In this document: positions 4,919 through 12,560 of the stretch, in pieces | Layout: each line of letters begins with the position of its first letter | Numbering within the stretch: position 1 is the first letter of the stretch | IMG/VR virus record: IMGVR_UViG_3300033143_001929 | Location: 1 to 23,166 of that record | Direction: 5' to 3' (one strand) | DNA from: a virus | Length of the DNA: 23,166 bases | Position numbers and translations under genes: made by a program | The notes under the pieces: generated by a model | Databases searched by the model: none | Seen by the model: the letters and a program-made list of their open reading frames with translations, nothing else | Told to the model about the DNA's origin: nothing

Positions 4919-6028
4919 ATGGCTACAATAGGTGATACTGGCGCTCCCAGTACCAATACCCTATATTACGATGCGTTACTGTCTACGACATTAGATTCTT
5001 ATGTCGGCAGTGGTAACATGTTTGATAATATCTTCAAGGACAGTGCGTTTCTCGCGTTTTTGCGTCAGTCAAATGCAGTACAAATGCAGAATGGCGGCGA
5101 ACGTATCCGCGCTCCCTTGATGTACGGGAAAAACAGTACCGTTAAATCTTACTCCGACTATGAAACACTGGACACCACGCCACAAGACGGCATGACTACA
5201 GCGTTTTATGACTGGCGCGAGATTGGCGGCACTATCTCAATTTCACGTAAAGAAGAACGTCAGAACTCAGGCGAGGCGGCTATTATTGCCCTGCTTGAAA
5301 GTAAGATTCGACAGGCAGAAATGTCTATGCGTGAAGAAATCAACCGGCAACTAATCCAGGGTACGGTGTCAAGTTCGACATTTATTCCTGGTAATGAAGC
5401 CAAAGACCTGAACCCGCTTGCATGGTTCTTGCGTAAAGACAACACAACTGATCCCACCACGGGCGGTAATGTTGGCAATATCGCAGGTGCTACCGAGGAT
5501 TGGTGGAGACATCAGACAGCTGTTGGCAATAGTGGATCAAAAGACACGGGCAATGATTTTGCGCTGGCAATTACGACTTATGCAGGATTAAAAGTCGGCT
5601 TGCGTAGAATGTACAATACTTGTTCTCGTGGCTCTGGCGGTTCACCTAATCTGGTTCTTATGGATCAAATTACGTTTGAAACGTATGAGAATGCCCTGGA
5701 TACTCAGGTGCGCTATCAAAACACTGCAATGGCTGATATGGGCTTTGATAATATCAAGCTACGCGGGGCTACTTGTGTATGGGATGAGCAGGTTCCTGAT
5801 CTGGATAGCGGCACTGTCGCTAATACAACTGGAACGGCGTTCTTCTTGAACACAAACTTTTATAACCTGATAATCGATCAAGAAACTGATGTTGTTACGA
5901 CTCCGTTTGTTGAGCCTGAGAATCAGACAGCGAAGACAGCTAAGATACTGTTTATGGGTAATACTGCGGTAAGTAACTTGCGTAAGCATGGCGCTCTCTA
6001 TGGTATGCCTTTGACAATCGTGTCTTAA
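4919..6028 (+). CDS. Major capsid protein (HK97-fold type)
   Basis: A 369-residue protein that forms the head shell. Features expected of the HK97-type group are an extended N-terminal arm (about 1-60), a beta-rich E-loop-like region around 70-110 (IRAPLMYGKNS, then DGMTTAFYDWREIGGTISIS), and a long helix rich in Glu, Arg and Gln (about 112-150, with EMSMREEINRQLIQG). The family is inferred from size, architecture and position between scaffold and decoration gene. There is no obvious N-terminal propeptide. It has one of the strongest ribosome-binding sites in the window (GAGGAAA, 4909-4915), consistent with the highest expression. Intact, with no odd features. Confidence 0.9.
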   Translation: MATIGDTGAPSTNTLYYDALLSTTLDSYVGSGNMFDNIFKDSAFLAFLRQSNAVQMQNGGERIRAPLMYGKNSTVKSYSDYETLDTTPQDGMTTAFYDWREIGGTISISRKEERQNSGEAAIIALLESKIRQAEMSMREEINRQLIQGTVSSSTFIPGNEAKDLNPLAWFLRKDNTTDPTTGGNVGNIAGATEDWWRHQTAVGNSGSKDTGNDFALAITTYAGLKVGLRRMYNTCSRGSGGSPNLVLMDQITFETYENALDTQVRYQNTAMADMGFDNIKLRGATCVWDEQVPDLDSGTVANTTGTAFFLNTNFYNLIIDQETDVVTTPFVEPENQTAKTAKILFMGNTAVSNLRKHGALYGMPLTIVS

Positions 6029-6082: not shown

Positions 6083-6559
6083 ATGTTATTTCAACGTATT
6101 AACAGGAGCAATCCTGAGAAAATATTTATTGTTGCAAAAAATTCCTATGCAACCGCTTCTCTGACCAACGGTCAGGCGGTTATCTGGGATTATGCCACTG
6201 ACGCTGATGGTGTCGGTGTAACAAAACCAACTGATGGTACAGGTCGCGCAGGTCATTATGGCAATGCGTTTGCCGGTATCGCTTCTGAAACTATCGCTTC
6301 TGGTGATTATGGTCTTTTACAGACTTATGGTTATCATTCAGCGGTTCGTGTTCGCACGCATACGGGGGCTAACCCTGCAATTGCTGCGGGTACGGCTTTG
6401 ACATGTGTTGATGCTATTTTTGCATTGGCAAGTTATCCAGCTGCAGCTGCAGCTACATCTACCGTTACCCTGCATAACGCAGACTGGGTAGGTCATGCAC
6501 TGGCAGCACAGGCGAGCTTTACGACGAAGGCCGTAGCTTGTTTCTTGAAGGGTCTTTAA
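6083..6559 (+). CDS. Probable head decoration / minor capsid protein
   Basis: A 158-residue protein rich in Ala, Gly and Thr, mostly predicted beta, with segments such as YGNAFAGIASETIASGDYG and an Ala-rich stretch near 117-124. The gene directly follows the major capsid gene, has its own good ribosome-binding site (AAAGGA about eight bases before the ATG), and is followed by a hairpin-type terminator. That pairing suggests a head decoration protein needed in many copies. Similar small beta proteins next to capsid genes are often annotated as decoration or head-fibre proteins. No motif proves it. Confidence 0.6.
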   Translation: MLFQRINRSNPEKIFIVAKNSYATASLTNGQAVIWDYATDADGVGVTKPTDGTGRAGHYGNAFAGIASETIASGDYGLLQTYGYHSAVRVRTHTGANPAIAAGTALTCVDAIFALASYPAAAAATSTVTLHNADWVGHALAAQASFTTKAVACFLKGL

Positions 6560-6604: not shown

Positions 6605-6874
6605 ATGAACGAAGCAATTAATGAAGCAGAAGCAAAATACAGTTTTGACGGGCCATTTAAAGAGCCTGTTGTTAAATGTGATTCATGCCAGGAGATTTTG
6701 TTAAGGCAGCGATTACAGCAAACGGGCAAATGTCCTCATTGCGGTAATACTCGTGTCAGGAATGTCAATAATATGACAGAAGCTGATGCAGCAAAGGCTA
6801 AAAAGTGGGCAGAAGAAGGCTTGCTTGATGCTGATTGGCTAACCTTGTTTGAAGCGAATGAGGTGGATGCATGA
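6605..6874 (+). CDS. Small zinc-ribbon protein
   Basis: An 89-residue protein with a four-cysteine zinc ribbon: C25/C28 (CDSC) and C43/C46 (CPHC), followed by GNTRVRNVNN. Around it are an acidic N-terminal helix and an Ala/Lys then acidic C-terminal helix. It starts a new block after the candidate terminator, with GATAGG (6591-6596) eight bases before the ATG, and is coupled by ATGA to the glycosyltransferase-methyltransferase gene. Similar small proteins are common in phage head operons, but their role is not established. Confidence 0.7.
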   Translation: MNEAINEAEAKYSFDGPFKEPVVKCDSCQEILLRQRLQQTGKCPHCGNTRVRNVNNMTEADAAKAKKWAEEGLLDADWLTLFEANEVDA

Positions 6875-8256
6875 AGATTGTTATCGGTATTCCTTGCTAT
6901 CAAGGGGTAAGTGCAGAGACTTTGGAAGACTACATGCGCCTTTCGTATTATTTAGGCCGCAGATGTTCAGAGCATGAGTTTACATTAGCTATTAAGAGCA
7001 AATCAGAGCAATTCAGGGCAAGAAATGCCATTGTTGAAGGCGCTTTGCAGGTCGGGGCTGATTATCTGTTATTTCTTGATGATGACCATGTTATTGACTG
7101 GGAAATAACATCGGGTCCTAACAGCCGATATGGGATGGTGCAAACCCTGATAGACCATCTTGAGAATGATGAGAAAATGGGCGTTTGCGGAGTAGTTTAT
7201 TATCACCGTGGCTCACAATGCAGACCTGTCTTGATGAAAAGAGGCAATGACGGCGGTTATTATTGGTTGCGTGATGATGAGATAACTGGAGAACTGCAAG
7301 AGGTCGCTGTGCAAGGCGGCGGCTGTATGATGCTTAAAATGAGCATGTTTGATCGTATTCAAGCTCCTTATTTTGAGCCGGAGCATGATTTAGGGACTGA
7401 TTTACAGATCAGTACCAAAGCAATCGAAGCCGGTTTCAAGGTATGTTGTGATACTTCTATTCAAATAGGCCATGTTCTTGCAAAACGTGAGGTTGTATCC
7501 CCTCAGAACCGCCACAGGATAGCAATGGAGAACGCACAGCAGGTTTCAGGTGGTGCAGAAGGGCTTGATAGTGCTTGGATGCTAAACAGCGCACTAGGGC
7601 TTTACAGGCAGGATGCAGAGGAATACCTGGGCTGCAAAATGCAAGACATGGGATCTATTGCAATGCGTTACAGCATGGATGATCTTGAAAAGTACAAGGG
7701 CGACCTGAAAAAATATTATGCAACGCGAGGGAAAGAGCAGTTAGCGCGGCAAGTCTTGTTTCATCATACAGACCCTATGGTGCAGCAAATGGAAATGTTT
7801 CATAACATGGTTAATTCACAGGCTCCTGCACGTGGCGTAGATGTAGGATGTGGATCGGCTCCAGTAACCTTTGAGCTGGCTATGCGAGGCCATCATATTG
7901 ATTTTGTGGATGTCGATGGTGCTGCAGCTTATGACTTCACTAAATGGCGTGCTGAAAAACGCGGTATTGATGCAGGCTTTGAGCTTAAAGGGCCTTATGA
8001 CTACGCATTTATGCTGGATTCAATCGAGCATATAGAAGATTGGCAATCAGTTCTTTTGGAGGTGATCGAGAATCTAAAGGAAGACGGCGCATTTATCACA
8101 AACTATTTCTTCAACAATGACTTTGATAATCCAGAGCACGTTTCAATGGATCACGCGGCTGTCAAGATGTTTCTGACAGAACACGGTGTATTTCCGTTAA
8201 GTGACTTATTATGGACTAAAAAAGACCTTGGATTTATGGATAAGGAGGCAGGATGA
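6871..8256 (+). CDS. Glycosyltransferase (GT-A type) fused to SAM-dependent methyltransferase
   Basis: A 461-residue two-domain enzyme. The N-terminal half (about 1-230) looks like a GT-A family glycosyltransferase. MKIVIGIPCYQG opens the nucleotide-sugar fold, FLDDDH (68-73) is the DxD-type metal/nucleotide-sugar motif, GGGCMMLKMSMF (149-160) and EPEHDLGTD (169-177) resemble acceptor-side motifs, and H201 is a further candidate ligand. After a helical linker (230-315) comes a class I methyltransferase: VDVGCGSAP (323-331) is the SAM-binding glycine loop, FVDVDG (345-350) the acidic strand end, and LDSIEHIED (382-390) matches the motif after it. The pathway is unknown. Its place between capsid and tail genes suggests that it glycosylates and methylates a virion part or host glycan; this is inference. 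Overlaps by ATGA at both ends. Confidence 0.85.
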   Translation: MKIVIGIPCYQGVSAETLEDYMRLSYYLGRRCSEHEFTLAIKSKSEQFRARNAIVEGALQVGADYLLFLDDDHVIDWEITSGPNSRYGMVQTLIDHLENDEKMGVCGVVYYHRGSQCRPVLMKRGNDGGYYWLRDDEITGELQEVAVQGGGCMMLKMSMFDRIQAPYFEPEHDLGTDLQISTKAIEAGFKVCCDTSIQIGHVLAKREVVSPQNRHRIAMENAQQVSGGAEGLDSAWMLNSALGLYRQDAEEYLGCKMQDMGSIAMRYSMDDLEKYKGDLKKYYATRGKEQLARQVLFHHTDPMVQQMEMFHNMVNSQAPARGVDVGCGSAPVTFELAMRGHHIDFVDVDGAAAYDFTKWRAEKRGIDAGFELKGPYDYAFMLDSIEHIEDWQSVLLEVIENLKEDGAFITNYFFNNDFDNPEHVSMDHAAVKMFLTEHGVFPLSDLLWTKKDLGFMDKEAG

Positions 8257-8534
8257 GTATTCAGGCGAGATCGGTATTTTTTGATAATACCAACAATATT
8301 GTACGTTTTTGGGATTGGGCTATTGTGACTACGACTTTGGGAACAATGGCAGAGCCTTTTGTCGTTAATGAGCGTACACAACTTAATACGCCAACAATTG
8401 AATTTGACCCGACTGATGAAATGGTACGCATTGACAATATACGCGCTATGCCGGTAGGACAGTCTTATAATGTTTTATCAGGTGATGATATGCCCATGCA
8501 TGGCGGTGAACAAATGCCGCGTGATGGCAGATAA
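8253..8534 (+). CDS. Unknown small late protein
   Basis: A 93-residue protein that I do not recognise. The sequence looks beta-rich, with no cysteines and no membrane segment, and ends in a flexible Gly/Met/Asp-rich tail (MPMHGGEQMPRDGR). It is coupled to the preceding enzyme gene by an ATGA-type overlap, so it is probably translated with it. It could be a minor head protein or a partner of the enzyme. Nothing in the sequence decides between these. Confidence 0.6.
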   Translation: MSIQARSVFFDNTNNIVRFWDWAIVTTTLGTMAEPFVVNERTQLNTPTIEFDPTDEMVRIDNIRAMPVGQSYNVLSGDDMPMHGGEQMPRDGR

Positions 8535-8594: not shown

Positions 8595-9233
8595 ATGAAT
8601 GAACTCGAAAAGCATGTGCTTCAAATCATCGGAGAGGACACGACTTCCCCTGATGTATTTTTAAATACAGATGCAGGCATGGAGCCGATACGTGATTCTA
8701 TTAACGATGCTATTCAAGAGATAACGGCGTTAACAGGGTCGGTAAAGGAAACCTACTTTATTCCCCTGGTAGCTGGTCAGATGTTTTACAGGATCAGTTT
8801 TACCAGTGGGTTTTTTGGTTGGGTTACAGATGCATGGCTGGTCAATCAGAAAAGACGATTAGTACAAACCGATGTACTCAAGTTAAGCCGTGATAATCCT
8901 AGATGGATGTTAACCAATGGATCACCAGAGCAATACATGCAGATTGGTGAGGATACGCTTGGTGTTTATCGAAAGCCTGGAGGCAGTGATGACATGATAG
9001 AATTAACTGTCGTCACTATTCCAAAGCGGTATGAAACAGACAAAGATCGTGTAAAATTAAGAGACACGTTTAAATGGGCTGCAGTTCATTATGCTGTTTC
9101 TGAGTATTGGGTTAGTCGCGGAGATGTTAAGGCGGCTAATTTCGACCTTGCTAAATACATTGAAGAACTGGGCATACAGAGTCTTTATCCAGAAGCACAG
9201 GAGAGGTTTCGTACCTTTAATGCACGCAGATGA
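8595..9233 (+). CDS. Probable head-tail adaptor protein
   Basis: A 212-residue protein. The N-terminal helical region (ISDSIND-like segment, IRDSINDAIQEITALTG at about 32-48) leads into a beta region and a long C-terminal helix (about 155-195). That plan is seen in the gp6-like or tail-tubular-A-like adaptors that join the portal to the short tail. The gene lies upstream of the other tail genes and overlaps the next by ATGA (9230-9233), as expected for an adaptor. No conserved catalytic residues are present. The call relies on fold-type impression and gene order; a head completion protein is the main alternative. Confidence 0.6.
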   Translation: MNELEKHVLQIIGEDTTSPDVFLNTDAGMEPIRDSINDAIQEITALTGSVKETYFIPLVAGQMFYRISFTSGFFGWVTDAWLVNQKRRLVQTDVLKLSRDNPRWMLTNGSPEQYMQIGEDTLGVYRKPGGSDDMIELTVVTIPKRYETDKDRVKLRDTFKWAAVHYAVSEYWVSRGDVKAANFDLAKYIEELGIQSLYPEAQERFRTFNARR

Positions 9234-9967
9234 ATTATGGACAGCAACTTAAAAGAATCAGGCGCTATCTCAGGGACCCAGACGGGAATTTATGGGATAA
9301 TGCATATCTGAAAACAGTATTTAACGATATTCAGCGCGAAATACAAAAGAAAACACAGTTCTTAGAATCTATTGCCGCTATCCGTATTCCACAGACATAT
9401 CAATTTTCATATATGTTCGATTTTGAATGGTCGAGCTTATCCGGTTCATTATTTTATCGTTGTTTGAAATTCTACCAGCAAGCAGGCTTTGCTATATGTA
9501 ATCGATGGGAAGCACAAACTCAGTTTGGTAATAGCGGTTTAAGTGACGATAACGGCGCTATGTTTACCCAAGTATGGGAAGCGTGGTATTTATCACCAAA
9601 TGAGGCTATCAGAACATCATTTCCTAAAAACTTTCATACAACCAAGCTACTGGCCTTCGATAATGAGCCGATAGATTATATTGATAAAAAATCCATTACG
9701 ATGCAGGACCCCGCTTATCAGTCAAGAGAGGGCAAGCCACTGGGGTACTACAGGGAGGATGATTTAGAAAACGATTTCATCATATACCCGCGTCCATCGT
9801 CTATTGTATGGGATGATGTTATCCGTTTATGCGTGGCATGTACTTATTTGAGATTGGCACAGAGCAATCAGGTCAGTTTGGCATGGTTATATACCGTGAA
9901 GGGGATACCGTTGAGGGCATTGGTATTATCGCTTCGCGTACAGGGTCTCTGTTTAATCAGGATTTAG
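9230..9967 (+). CDS. Connector/tail protein, N-terminal part of a frameshifted gene
   Basis: This 245-residue frame starts in ATGA overlap with the adaptor gene. It looks like a real phage structural protein up to about residue 197 (SSIVWDDV, ending near 9820). After that the translation (VACTYLRLAQSN onward) turns into unstructured shadow-like sequence to the stop at 9965. The sensible continuation, GMYLFEIGTEQSG, is in the -1 frame (next entry). That frame has a stop at 9814-9816, so the switch falls after it. Adding one base gives a 361-codon gene, 9230-10311. Position between adaptor and nozzle proteins suggests a virion connector or tail component. The last 48 or so residues of this frame are probably not real. 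Confidence 0.7.
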   Translation: MNYGQQLKRIRRYLRDPDGNLWDNAYLKTVFNDIQREIQKKTQFLESIAAIRIPQTYQFSYMFDFEWSSLSGSLFYRCLKFYQQAGFAICNRWEAQTQFGNSGLSDDNGAMFTQVWEAWYLSPNEAIRTSFPKNFHTTKLLAFDNEPIDYIDKKSITMQDPAYQSREGKPLGYYREDDLENDFIIYPRPSSIVWDDVIRLCVACTYLRLAQSNQVSLAWLYTVKGIPLRALVLSLRVQGLCLIRI

Positions 9968-10311
9968 GGCTTGCGATCGACATTGTAGAGGCTGATAACA
10001 ACGTATTATTGATTTATGATGTTATGCCTGGGGATATTCAGGATGATAACGATGAGAGTGATTTCCCTGAATATTTGCAAAAATATATCGAGTGCGGGGT
10101 ATTGGAGCGTGCCTATACTGCTAACACTGATGGGCGCATCGATAGTCTTAGGGATTATTGGGGCGGGCGTTATCGTTTGGGCTTATCCGTTATAGAGATG
10201 ATCAAGGGTAAGCGCAAGGCAGACCGTGTTTATCGCCTTAGAACCTCACAAAGACCTGCACAGAGAAACTTTAGGCATCCACGCCTTCCAGACGGATATC
10301 CAGCAGTATGA
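9829..10311 (+). CDS. Connector/tail protein, C-terminal part of a frameshifted gene
   Basis: This frame is open from 9817 and its first ATG is at 9829. It continues the preceding frame with well-formed protein: beta segments (FGMVIYREGDTVEGIGIIAS), then a helical, charged C-terminal region (DFPEYLQKYIECGVLERAYT) and a basic end (RNFRHPRLPDGYPAV). Its stop overlaps the next gene's start as ATGA (10308-10311), which anchors this frame as the genuine end of the gene. There is no good ribosome-binding site for the ATG at 9829. Translation as a separate protein is therefore less likely than being the second half of one protein of about 360 residues. Confidence 0.7.
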   Translation: MRGMYLFEIGTEQSGQFGMVIYREGDTVEGIGIIASRTGSLFNQDLGLAIDIVEADNNVLLIYDVMPGDIQDDNDESDFPEYLQKYIECGVLERAYTANTDGRIDSLRDYWGGRYRLGLSVIEMIKGKRKADRVYRLRTSQRPAQRNFRHPRLPDGYPAV

Positions 10312-12026: not shown

Positions 12027-12560
12027 ATGATATTAGTACCTTATGTAGAGTTAAACGGCTCTAGAACTATTTCTGATGATATTTTAATATCTGTATTTAA
12101 TCAAACAAAAGAAGATGGTATTTTTGACACTGTTTTTTATGAGGGGAATATAAATACAGAGCAAGATTTTATTAGCATAATGAAATCCGCCAATAATTAC
12201 CCTGTCTTTATTTTTGATGAAGATAAAACCCCTTTAGGCTATGCGTGGCTAAATGGACTCGGCAACAATCATGCGTTTGCCCACTTTTGCTACTTGAAAA
12301 GATCATGGGGTAAGCATACACAAGAATTTGGCAGCAAACTTTTAAAATATTGGTTTTCATTCCCCGGCGAAGAGGGTCTTTTGTTTGATGTAATTTTAGG
12401 CAATGTTCCTGATTTTAATAAACATGCTCATAAATATATTGAGAAATTAGGATTTAAGAAAGTAGGGGAGATACCAAAAATGTGTATTAATAAAAGTTCC
12501 AATCGAAAATCCAGTTATTATCTGTACTATTATTTGAGGGAAGATCATGGGCAAGAGTAG
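12027..12560 (+). CDS. GNAT-like N-acetyltransferase (accessory gene)
   Basis: A 177-residue protein resembling a GNAT acyltransferase. HAFAHFCYLK (82-91) fits the beta-4 strand, RSWGKHTQEFGSKLL (92-106) fits the CoA-pyrophosphate loop and helix, and NVPDFNKHAHKYIEKLGFK (126-144) is the classic 'N...A..YEKLGF' end motif. A beta-strand tail with YYLYYYLRED follows. The substrate is unknown. The gene sits between nozzle and ejection genes, looks AT-richer than its neighbours by eye, and has its own start signal (GATAGGAG, 12013-12020). That suggests a cargo gene inserted in the late operon. It overlaps the next gene by 14 bases. Confidence 0.7.
   Translation: MILVPYVELNGSRTISDDILISVFNQTKEDGIFDTVFYEGNINTEQDFISIMKSANNYPVFIFDEDKTPLGYAWLNGLGNNHAFAHFCYLKRSWGKHTQEFGSKLLKYWFSFPGEEGLLFDVILGNVPDFNKHAHKYIEKLGFKKVGEIPKMCINKSSNRKSSYYLYYYLREDHGQE

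What the first reader, a model, noticed from the sequence alone, without database searches (positions are those of the whole stretch)
6871..8256. Glycosyltransferase-methyltransferase fusion inside the structural operon
One 461-residue protein joins a GT-A glycosyltransferase (FLDDDH motif) to a class I methyltransferase (VDVGCGSAP). It is coupled by overlaps to a zinc-ribbon gene before and an unknown gene after, in the stretch between capsid and tail genes. O-methylated sugars on proteins or lipopolysaccharide are known elsewhere. A late-expressed bifunctional enzyme here suggests capsid or tail glycan decoration, or modification of host glycans to block re-infection. The three-gene set 6605-8534 may be one functional unit.
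Basis: partly seen in the sequence, partly recalled or inferred. Interest (0 to 1): 0.65.

Follow-up and report, generated by a model that had tools for sequence, protein, structure and literature searches.

The report
Phage sugar-transferase–methylase in capsid–tail island
A family of uncultured short-tailed phages carries, between its capsid and tail genes, a swappable set of sugar-building enzymes centred on one protein that appears both to attach a sugar and to methylate it, most likely to coat the phage particle itself with an unusual sugar.

Summary
Window 6871-8256 encodes 461 aa: an N-terminal GT-A glycosyltransferase and a C-terminal class I SAM methyltransferase. ATGA overlaps couple it to the genes on both sides. 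The fusion is a real family. Seventeen full-length members (relatives 42-65% identical to the window copy) have invariant catalytic residues in both halves. Wherever the flanks could be read, the gene lies between the capsid/decoration genes and the SU10-type adaptor gene.

The site is a hypervariable glycan-enzyme island. Sister phages carry, at the same place, separate GT-A and methyltransferase genes, GT-B enzymes, RMNT_CmcI O-methyltransferases, DegT sugar aminotransferases, sulfotransferases, WbqC and radical SAM/SPASM enzymes. A four-cysteine zinc-ribbon gene directly precedes the GT-A in 25 of 27 cases. The 93-residue gene looks more like the island's downstream border.

Most likely role: cytoplasmic synthesis of an O-methylated sugar on virion proteins (confidence 0.6), by analogy with chlorovirus PBCV-1 A064R, a GT/methyltransferase fusion that builds methylated capsid glycans. 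Modification of host surface glycans is the main rival. DNA hypermodification is poorly supported. The acceptor and the sugar are unknown.

The parts
6871..8256 (+). GT-A glycosyltransferase / class I SAM methyltransferase fusion, 461 aa
   Evidence: 17 full-length members aligned
6871..7512 (+). GT-A domain (residues 1 to about 214): DDD 70-72, E171, G175-T176-D177 and H201 invariant in 17 of 17
   Evidence: alignment, model, fold matches
7570..7809 (+). helical linker (residues 234-313)
   Evidence: secondary structure
7819..8235 (+). class I methyltransferase domain (residues 317-455): D324, C327-G328, D383, E386-H387, N411 and E422-H423 invariant
6605..6874 (+). C4 zinc-ribbon gene, 89 aa, stop overlaps the fusion start (ATGA)
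   Evidence: four cysteines invariant in 25 aligned sequences; directly upstream of GT-A in 25 of 27 cases
8253..8534 (+). 93-aa gene of unknown function at the downstream border of the island, start overlaps the fusion stop (ATGA)
6083..6559 (+). 158-aa beta-rich protein, 1-3 copies right after the capsid gene in relatives; putative decoration protein and candidate glycan acceptor (inference)
   Evidence: low-confidence model
4919..6028 (+). major capsid protein, upstream border of the island
   Evidence: phrog_9953, E 3.5e-39
8595..9233 (+). SU10-type adaptor (head-tail), first gene after the island
   Evidence: PF24175, E 3e-11

Best explanation
The protein is a soluble bifunctional enzyme. 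The N-terminal GT-A domain, metal-dependent through the DDD motif and a C-terminal histidine, transfers a sugar from a nucleotide donor onto an acceptor. The fused C-terminal class I methyltransferase then O-methylates that sugar, or a neighbouring one, with SAM. It works with a small C4 zinc-ribbon partner, perhaps a substrate adaptor. The gene is the core of an exchangeable glycan-synthesis island placed among the head and tail genes of a group of short-tailed phages. Its most likely acceptor is a virion protein made in the same transcript, such as the decoration protein, the capsid protein or a tail protein, so that each phage wears its own modified sugar. Shown: fusion, conserved catalytic residues, predicted fold, position, linkage, glycan-enzyme neighbours, tree conflict. 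Inferred: chemistry, zinc-ribbon role, acceptor, benefit.
For: Two domains with invariant catalytic residues in 17 members and a confident model. The nearest solved folds for the GT half are protein or virus glycosyltransferases: collagen galactosyltransferase COLGALT1, LH3, STIV A197 (TM 0.70 by target length) and polypeptide GalNAc-transferases. The site lies between capsid/decoration and adaptor genes in every contig where both flanks were called. The neighbours at the site are glycan enzymes: GT-B, RMNT_CmcI (E 2e-40), DegT (E 3e-100), GNAT, WbqC, sulfotransferases, SPASM radical SAM. All 17 Methyltransf_11 matches in 17 contigs lie within about 1.3 kb of the GT-A gene, with none elsewhere. 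Only 3 of 146 island ORFs are strongly hydrophobic, so no flippase or membrane GT goes with them as a rule. MCP and fusion trees conflict with support, and a pair with 75% identical MCP can have 41% identical fusions, as expected for an exchanged surface trait. Precedents: PBCV-1 A064R is a GT-GT-MT fusion that builds methylated rhamnose on the capsid glycan, and most of its GTs are predicted soluble (PMC9614988). STIV A197 is an essential GT-A thought to glycosylate the glycosylated capsid protein (PMC10551542). Mycobacteriophage Che8 carries capsid glycans (cited in PMC11256854).
Against: No cultured phage of this group was found in the collections searched, and no glycan or mass data exist. 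GT-A folds resemble each other whatever the acceptor, so fold neighbours do not fix it. Some contigs may be temperate (integrase in 1 of 14), so host-surface modification stays possible. The putative decoration protein could not be modelled with confidence, so no acceptor surface could be inspected.
Confidence: 0.6

Rival explanations
1. The island modifies the host's surface glycan (LPS core or O-unit) late in infection. The new methylated or sulfated sugar hides the receptor, stops progeny from binding debris and blocks other phages.
For: DegT, WbqC and GT enzymes are also typical of O-antigen clusters (family knowledge). One of 14 contigs has an integrase, so some members may be temperate. 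Cytoplasmic GTs can act on lipid-linked units before host flipping (general knowledge).
Against: The genes sit inside the head-tail module with late genes. There is no membrane GT or flippase-like partner as a rule: 3 of 146 island ORFs are strongly hydrophobic. Integrase was not found in 13 of 14 contigs, though these may be incomplete.
Confidence: 0.25
2. The GT glycosylates modified bases of the phage DNA (like the TET-associated or HMC glucosyltransferases), and the methyltransferase finishes the hypermodification.
For: Sub-threshold matches to TAGT (E 0.058) and phrog_842 (E 0.05). One TET-associated GT lies far down the viral fold list (rank 37).
Against: No thymidylate-synthase-type base hydroxymethylase in 14 contigs, with positive controls ringing. 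No Tet_JBP either, but that control did not ring and so shows little. The neighbours make sugars and sulfate esters, not bases. The site lies among head and tail genes, not replication genes.
Confidence: 0.05
3. The fusion modifies a small molecule, lipid or other host target. It is an auxiliary metabolic cargo that happens to sit at a permissive insertion point in the late operon.
For: The site tolerates many different genes, and no acceptor is shown.
Against: Cargo with recognisable families at this site is mostly sugar-related across contigs, and the zinc-ribbon/GT-A pair persists while other genes change.
Confidence: 0.1

Closest known systems
PBCV-1 A064R (chlorovirus, 638 aa; PMC9614988)
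   Same: Virus-encoded single polypeptide with an N-terminal GT-A domain with a DXD motif and a C-terminal class I O-methyltransferase; makes a methylated sugar on the virus's own capsid glycan.
   Different: A064R has a second GT domain between and infects algae. Its gene is expressed early. No sequence comparison was made here, and A064R-D1 is not among the 50 best fold matches.
STIV A197 (PDB 2c0n; PMC10551542)
   Same: Third-best fold match of the model (E 3e-9, TM 0.70 by target length); viral GT-A, thought to glycosylate the major capsid protein.
   Different: GT only, archaeal virus, 19% identity over aligned columns.
Mycobacteriophage Che8 capsid glycosylation (Freeman 2023, as cited in PMC11256854)
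   Same: Tailed phage with glycans on the capsid protein; related phage Maravista encodes putative GTs. A Che8 GT (Q855A2) appears in the viral fold list at rank 36.
   Different: In Maravista the GT genes are near the genome end, not between capsid and tail; no GT-MT fusion is reported in the passages read.
Bacterial protein glycosylation islands, e.g. the Pseudomonas syringae viosamine island (PMC3927599)
   Same: Clustered genes for a modified sugar on a surface protein. Sugar-modifying genes next to a GT resemble island L043 (RMNT_CmcI, DegT, GNAT, fusion).
   Different: Bacterial and flagellin-specific; enzymes are not fused as here; no zinc-ribbon partner known to me.
A0A0F7L1S0, family 2 glycosyl transferase, uncultured marine virus
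   Same: 45% identical over 337 columns; an already deposited relative, 350 aa long.
   Different: Shorter record; no study of it found.

Membership tests
GT-A glycosyltransferase, GT2-like | Rossmann-like GT-A fold with DXD metal motif | tested here: met
   Model matches GT-A enzymes in the PDB; DDD 70-72 invariant in 17 of 17
GT-A glycosyltransferase, GT2-like | Match above the curated Glycos_transf_2 cut-off | tested here: inconclusive
   22.3 bits against 23.3; just below, supported by fold
GT-A glycosyltransferase, GT2-like | Sugar transfer activity | not testable with these tools
   needs enzyme assay
Class I SAM-dependent methyltransferase | Motif I (D/E-x-G-x-G type) and family profile | tested here: met
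   VDVGCG, Methyltransf_23 39 bits over cut-off 27; D324, C327, G328 invariant
Class I SAM-dependent methyltransferase | Sugar O-methylation | not testable with these tools
   nearest solved relatives are mixed small-molecule methyltransferases
Viral capsid-glycan GT-MT fusion (A064R type) | GT-A and class I methyltransferase in one virus polypeptide | tested here: met
Viral capsid-glycan GT-MT fusion (A064R type) | Common descent with A064R | not tested
   no direct comparison made; A064R-D1 not among the top 50 PDB matches. Treated as analogy only
Viral capsid-glycan GT-MT fusion (A064R type) | Glycan present on the capsid protein | not testable with these tools
   needs virions
Phage serotype-conversion cluster (Gtr type) | Membrane GT and flippase beside a bactoprenol GT | tested here: not met
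   fusion has no hydrophobic segment (maximum 0.90) and 3 of 146 island ORFs are strongly hydrophobic; no Pfam match to flippases among the proteins scanned
DNA-base glycosyltransferase (TAGT / HMC-GT) | Profile match above cut-off | tested here: not met
   TAGT 13.7 bits against 27.5
DNA-base glycosyltransferase (TAGT / HMC-GT) | Base hydroxymethylase or TET/JBP in the same genome | tested here: inconclusive
   none of thymidylate-synthase type in 14 contigs; Tet_JBP search had no ringing control; contigs may be incomplete

The most novel reading that the evidence does not exclude
A whole lineage of short-tailed phages keeps a dedicated, fast-exchanging glycosylation cassette inside the head-tail operon. 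The cassette is anchored by a conserved zinc-ribbon/GT-A pair, and swapping its enzymes (methyl, sulfate, amino-dideoxy sugar, radical SAM) gives each phage a different chemical coat, much as bacteria vary O-antigens.
Probability: 0.5. Interest if true: 0.75.

Novelty: new variant of a known kind. Interest (0 to 1): 0.55.

Why it matters
Virion glycosylation by tailed phages is proved in few cases. A fixed site in a lineage where the glycan genes turn over while capsid genes stay alike would be a phage counterpart of O-antigen or flagellin glycosylation islands. It would mean that many environmental phage particles carry methylated, sulfated or amino-sugar coats that could affect adsorption, stability and recognition. 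It also gives a practical marker, the gap between capsid and adaptor genes, for finding such phages and new sugar-modifying enzymes.

Tried and rejected
Chance fusion or assembly artefact: rejected, since full-length relatives occur in independent contigs. Dead active site: rejected on sequence, since all expected catalytic residues are invariant. DNA hypermodification: poorly supported. Serotype-conversion cluster: defining membrane partners absent. PHROG and NCBIfam naming: nothing specific. Annotated phage and plasmid collections: no full relative. The first genome-contig scan found nothing; the second found a Smithella MAG contig that carries the fusion at the same site but is wholly phage-like where read, so it only hints at a host. 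Scanning for the zinc ribbon by itself found two contigs already known: the patterns were too narrow, and direct inspection of each locus was needed. The structure of the putative decoration protein was low confidence (pLDDT 55) and was not used for a fold search. Paper searches on phages of this group gave nothing about glycans. The Fisher test on zinc-ribbon linkage treats related genomes as independent and uses a rough background, so only the counts are relied on. Freeman 2023 itself is not held; it is cited through PMC11256854.

Full report
WHAT IS THERE. The window is a 23,166-base virus record from an uncultured phage. Its left part is a standard head-tail order: large terminase, portal, a zinc-finger ORF, scaffold, major capsid protein (phrog_9953, E 3.5e-39), a 158-aa protein, a zinc ribbon, the 461-aa protein, a 93-aa protein, then a SU10-type adaptor (the scaffold and zinc-finger names are inference). 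Pfam finds Methyltransf_23 at residues 317-455 (39 bits, cut-off 27) and Glycos_transf_2 at 42-162 (22.3 bits, cut-off 23.3).

IT IS A REAL FAMILY. Scans of viral contigs with growing alignments gave full-length relatives 42-65% identical to the window copy, with further ones among capsid relatives. The 17-row alignment, window included, has invariant D70-D72, G149-G151, E171, G175-T176-D177 and H201 in the GT half, and D324, C327-G328, D383, E386-H387, N411 and E422-H423 in the methyltransferase half. Those are the metal site, the base region and the SAM site expected for working GT-A and class I enzymes (family knowledge). No copy searched has a stop inside. AlphaFold2 gives mean pLDDT 86.6 with two domains and a helical linker; pTM 0.51 means that the domain orientation is uncertain. 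The best solved-structure matches are collagen hydroxylysine galactosyltransferase COLGALT1, STIV A197 (TM 0.70 by target length), LH3 and polypeptide GalNAc-transferases. These act on proteins or are viral, but GT-A folds are alike, so this is only suggestive. In the viral model library the top match, from an uncultured marine virus, is 45% identical over 337 columns, so the family has a deposited relative, and a Che8 mycobacteriophage GT appears lower down.

THE SITE. Wherever both flanks were called, the fusion lies between capsid/decoration and adaptor genes. Capsid relatives of 68-80% identity carry different genes at exactly this place. L034, L035, L037, L039 and L040 have a GT-B enzyme, a separate methyltransferase, a zinc ribbon and a separate GT-A. 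More distant phages (L007, L008, L010) have GT-A followed by methyltransferase as two overlapping genes. The fusion therefore has unfused counterparts at the same site. Other cargo identified by Pfam: radical SAM with SPASM, Sulfotransfer_1, Sulfotransfer_2, Sulfotransfer_3 (just below its cut-off), DegT_DnrJ_EryC1, GNAT, WbqC, GT2, and RMNT_CmcI, the rhamnosyl O-methyltransferase family. In L043 the order is zinc ribbon, RMNT_CmcI, DegT aminotransferase, GNAT, fusion. Aminotransferase plus acetyltransferase is the usual way to make acylated amino-dideoxy sugars (pathway knowledge); the P. syringae viosamine island is a bacterial example of such a cluster. All 17 Methyltransf_11 matches found in 17 whole contigs lie within about 1.3 kb of the GT-A gene, with none elsewhere. 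The distance from MCP to adaptor ranges from 2.5 to 8.3 kb.

PARTNERS. A zinc-ribbon gene lies directly upstream of the GT-A gene in 15 of 17 fusions (L043 and L049 have it elsewhere in the island) and in 10 of 10 unfused or truncated GT-A genes of the same capsid clade, but not in the outgroup phages checked. Two of the 15 (L004, L017) were missed by the strict pattern, because of a variant second knuckle and a longer upstream start, and were counted by homology. Its four cysteines are invariant in 25 aligned sequences. L058 and L060 have GT-A proteins with a short cysteine-containing N-terminal extension that resembles a degenerate ribbon (inference). The 93-aa family is found at the downstream edge of the island, often with other enzymes between it and the fusion. 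I read it as a border gene, possibly structural.

EVOLUTION. MCP and fusion trees disagree with support. The window's MCP groups with L003 and L004 (97/96), while its fusion groups with L017 (96/94). L017's MCP groups with L024 (99/99), whose fusion groups instead with L023 (100/100). L021 and L025 share 75% of MCP residues but 41% of fusion residues. The gene seems to be exchanged among related phages and to diverge faster than the capsid, as expected of a surface or arms-race trait.

HOW IT LIKELY WORKS. Shown: two conserved catalytic modules in one chain, position among head-tail genes with overlapping reading frames, constant zinc-ribbon partner, sugar-modifying neighbours, tree conflict. 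Inferred: the GT adds a sugar, the fused methyltransferase caps it by O-methylation, and the acceptor is a virion protein. Reasons: the neighbours in the operon are virion proteins, the enzymes lack membrane partners (3 of 146 island ORFs strongly hydrophobic), and integrase was seen in only 1 of 14 contigs, which may be incomplete. PBCV-1 A064R does the analogous job: N-terminal GT-A, C-terminal methyltransferase, methylated rhamnose on the capsid glycan. STIV A197 is essential and thought to glycosylate the capsid. Capsid glycans are reported for Che8.

RIVALS. Host-surface modification fits the enzyme types but not the position or the lack of membrane partners; it is kept at 0.25. DNA modification has only sub-threshold matches, and no thymidylate-synthase-type hydroxymethylase was found. 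The Tet_JBP search had no ringing control and counts for little.

VERDICT. As a protein this is a new variant of a known kind, virus-encoded GT-MT fusions for capsid glycans. The island is the more interesting part and is directly testable by mass spectrometry of virions.

Noticed in passing
window 9230-10311: A gene that is one ORF of about 347 aa in relatives (L002 8488-9537, L003 8436-9479) is split here into overlapping ORFs 9230-9967 and 9829-10311, so the window copy looks frameshifted (real or sequencing error).
   Followed up: partly
window 12027-12560: A GNAT acetyltransferase-like gene follows the tail gene at the same place in most relatives and has a weak, sub-threshold likeness to the sugar N-acetyltransferase PseH.
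   Followed up: no
L053 3712-5229; L005 3143-4156: The putative decoration protein is present as two or three tandem diverged copies in some relatives.
   Followed up: no
L049 15323-17387: Two different sulfotransferase families (Sulfotransfer_2 and Sulfotransfer_1) in one phage island, unusual for a small phage.
   Followed up: partly
L126: A contig binned to a Smithella MAG is wholly phage-like where read and carries the fusion at the same site, a weak hint at a host.
   Followed up: partly
L119 7857-8486 (MW202711.1): Another annotated phage also has a GT-A-like gene between capsid and tail tubular protein genes, without a zinc ribbon upstream.
   Followed up: partly
L002 6717-7586: Radical SAM/SPASM enzyme inserted between the 93-aa gene and the adaptor; also in L005, L050 and L053 near the fusion. 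Its role in glycan chemistry is unclear.
   Followed up: partly
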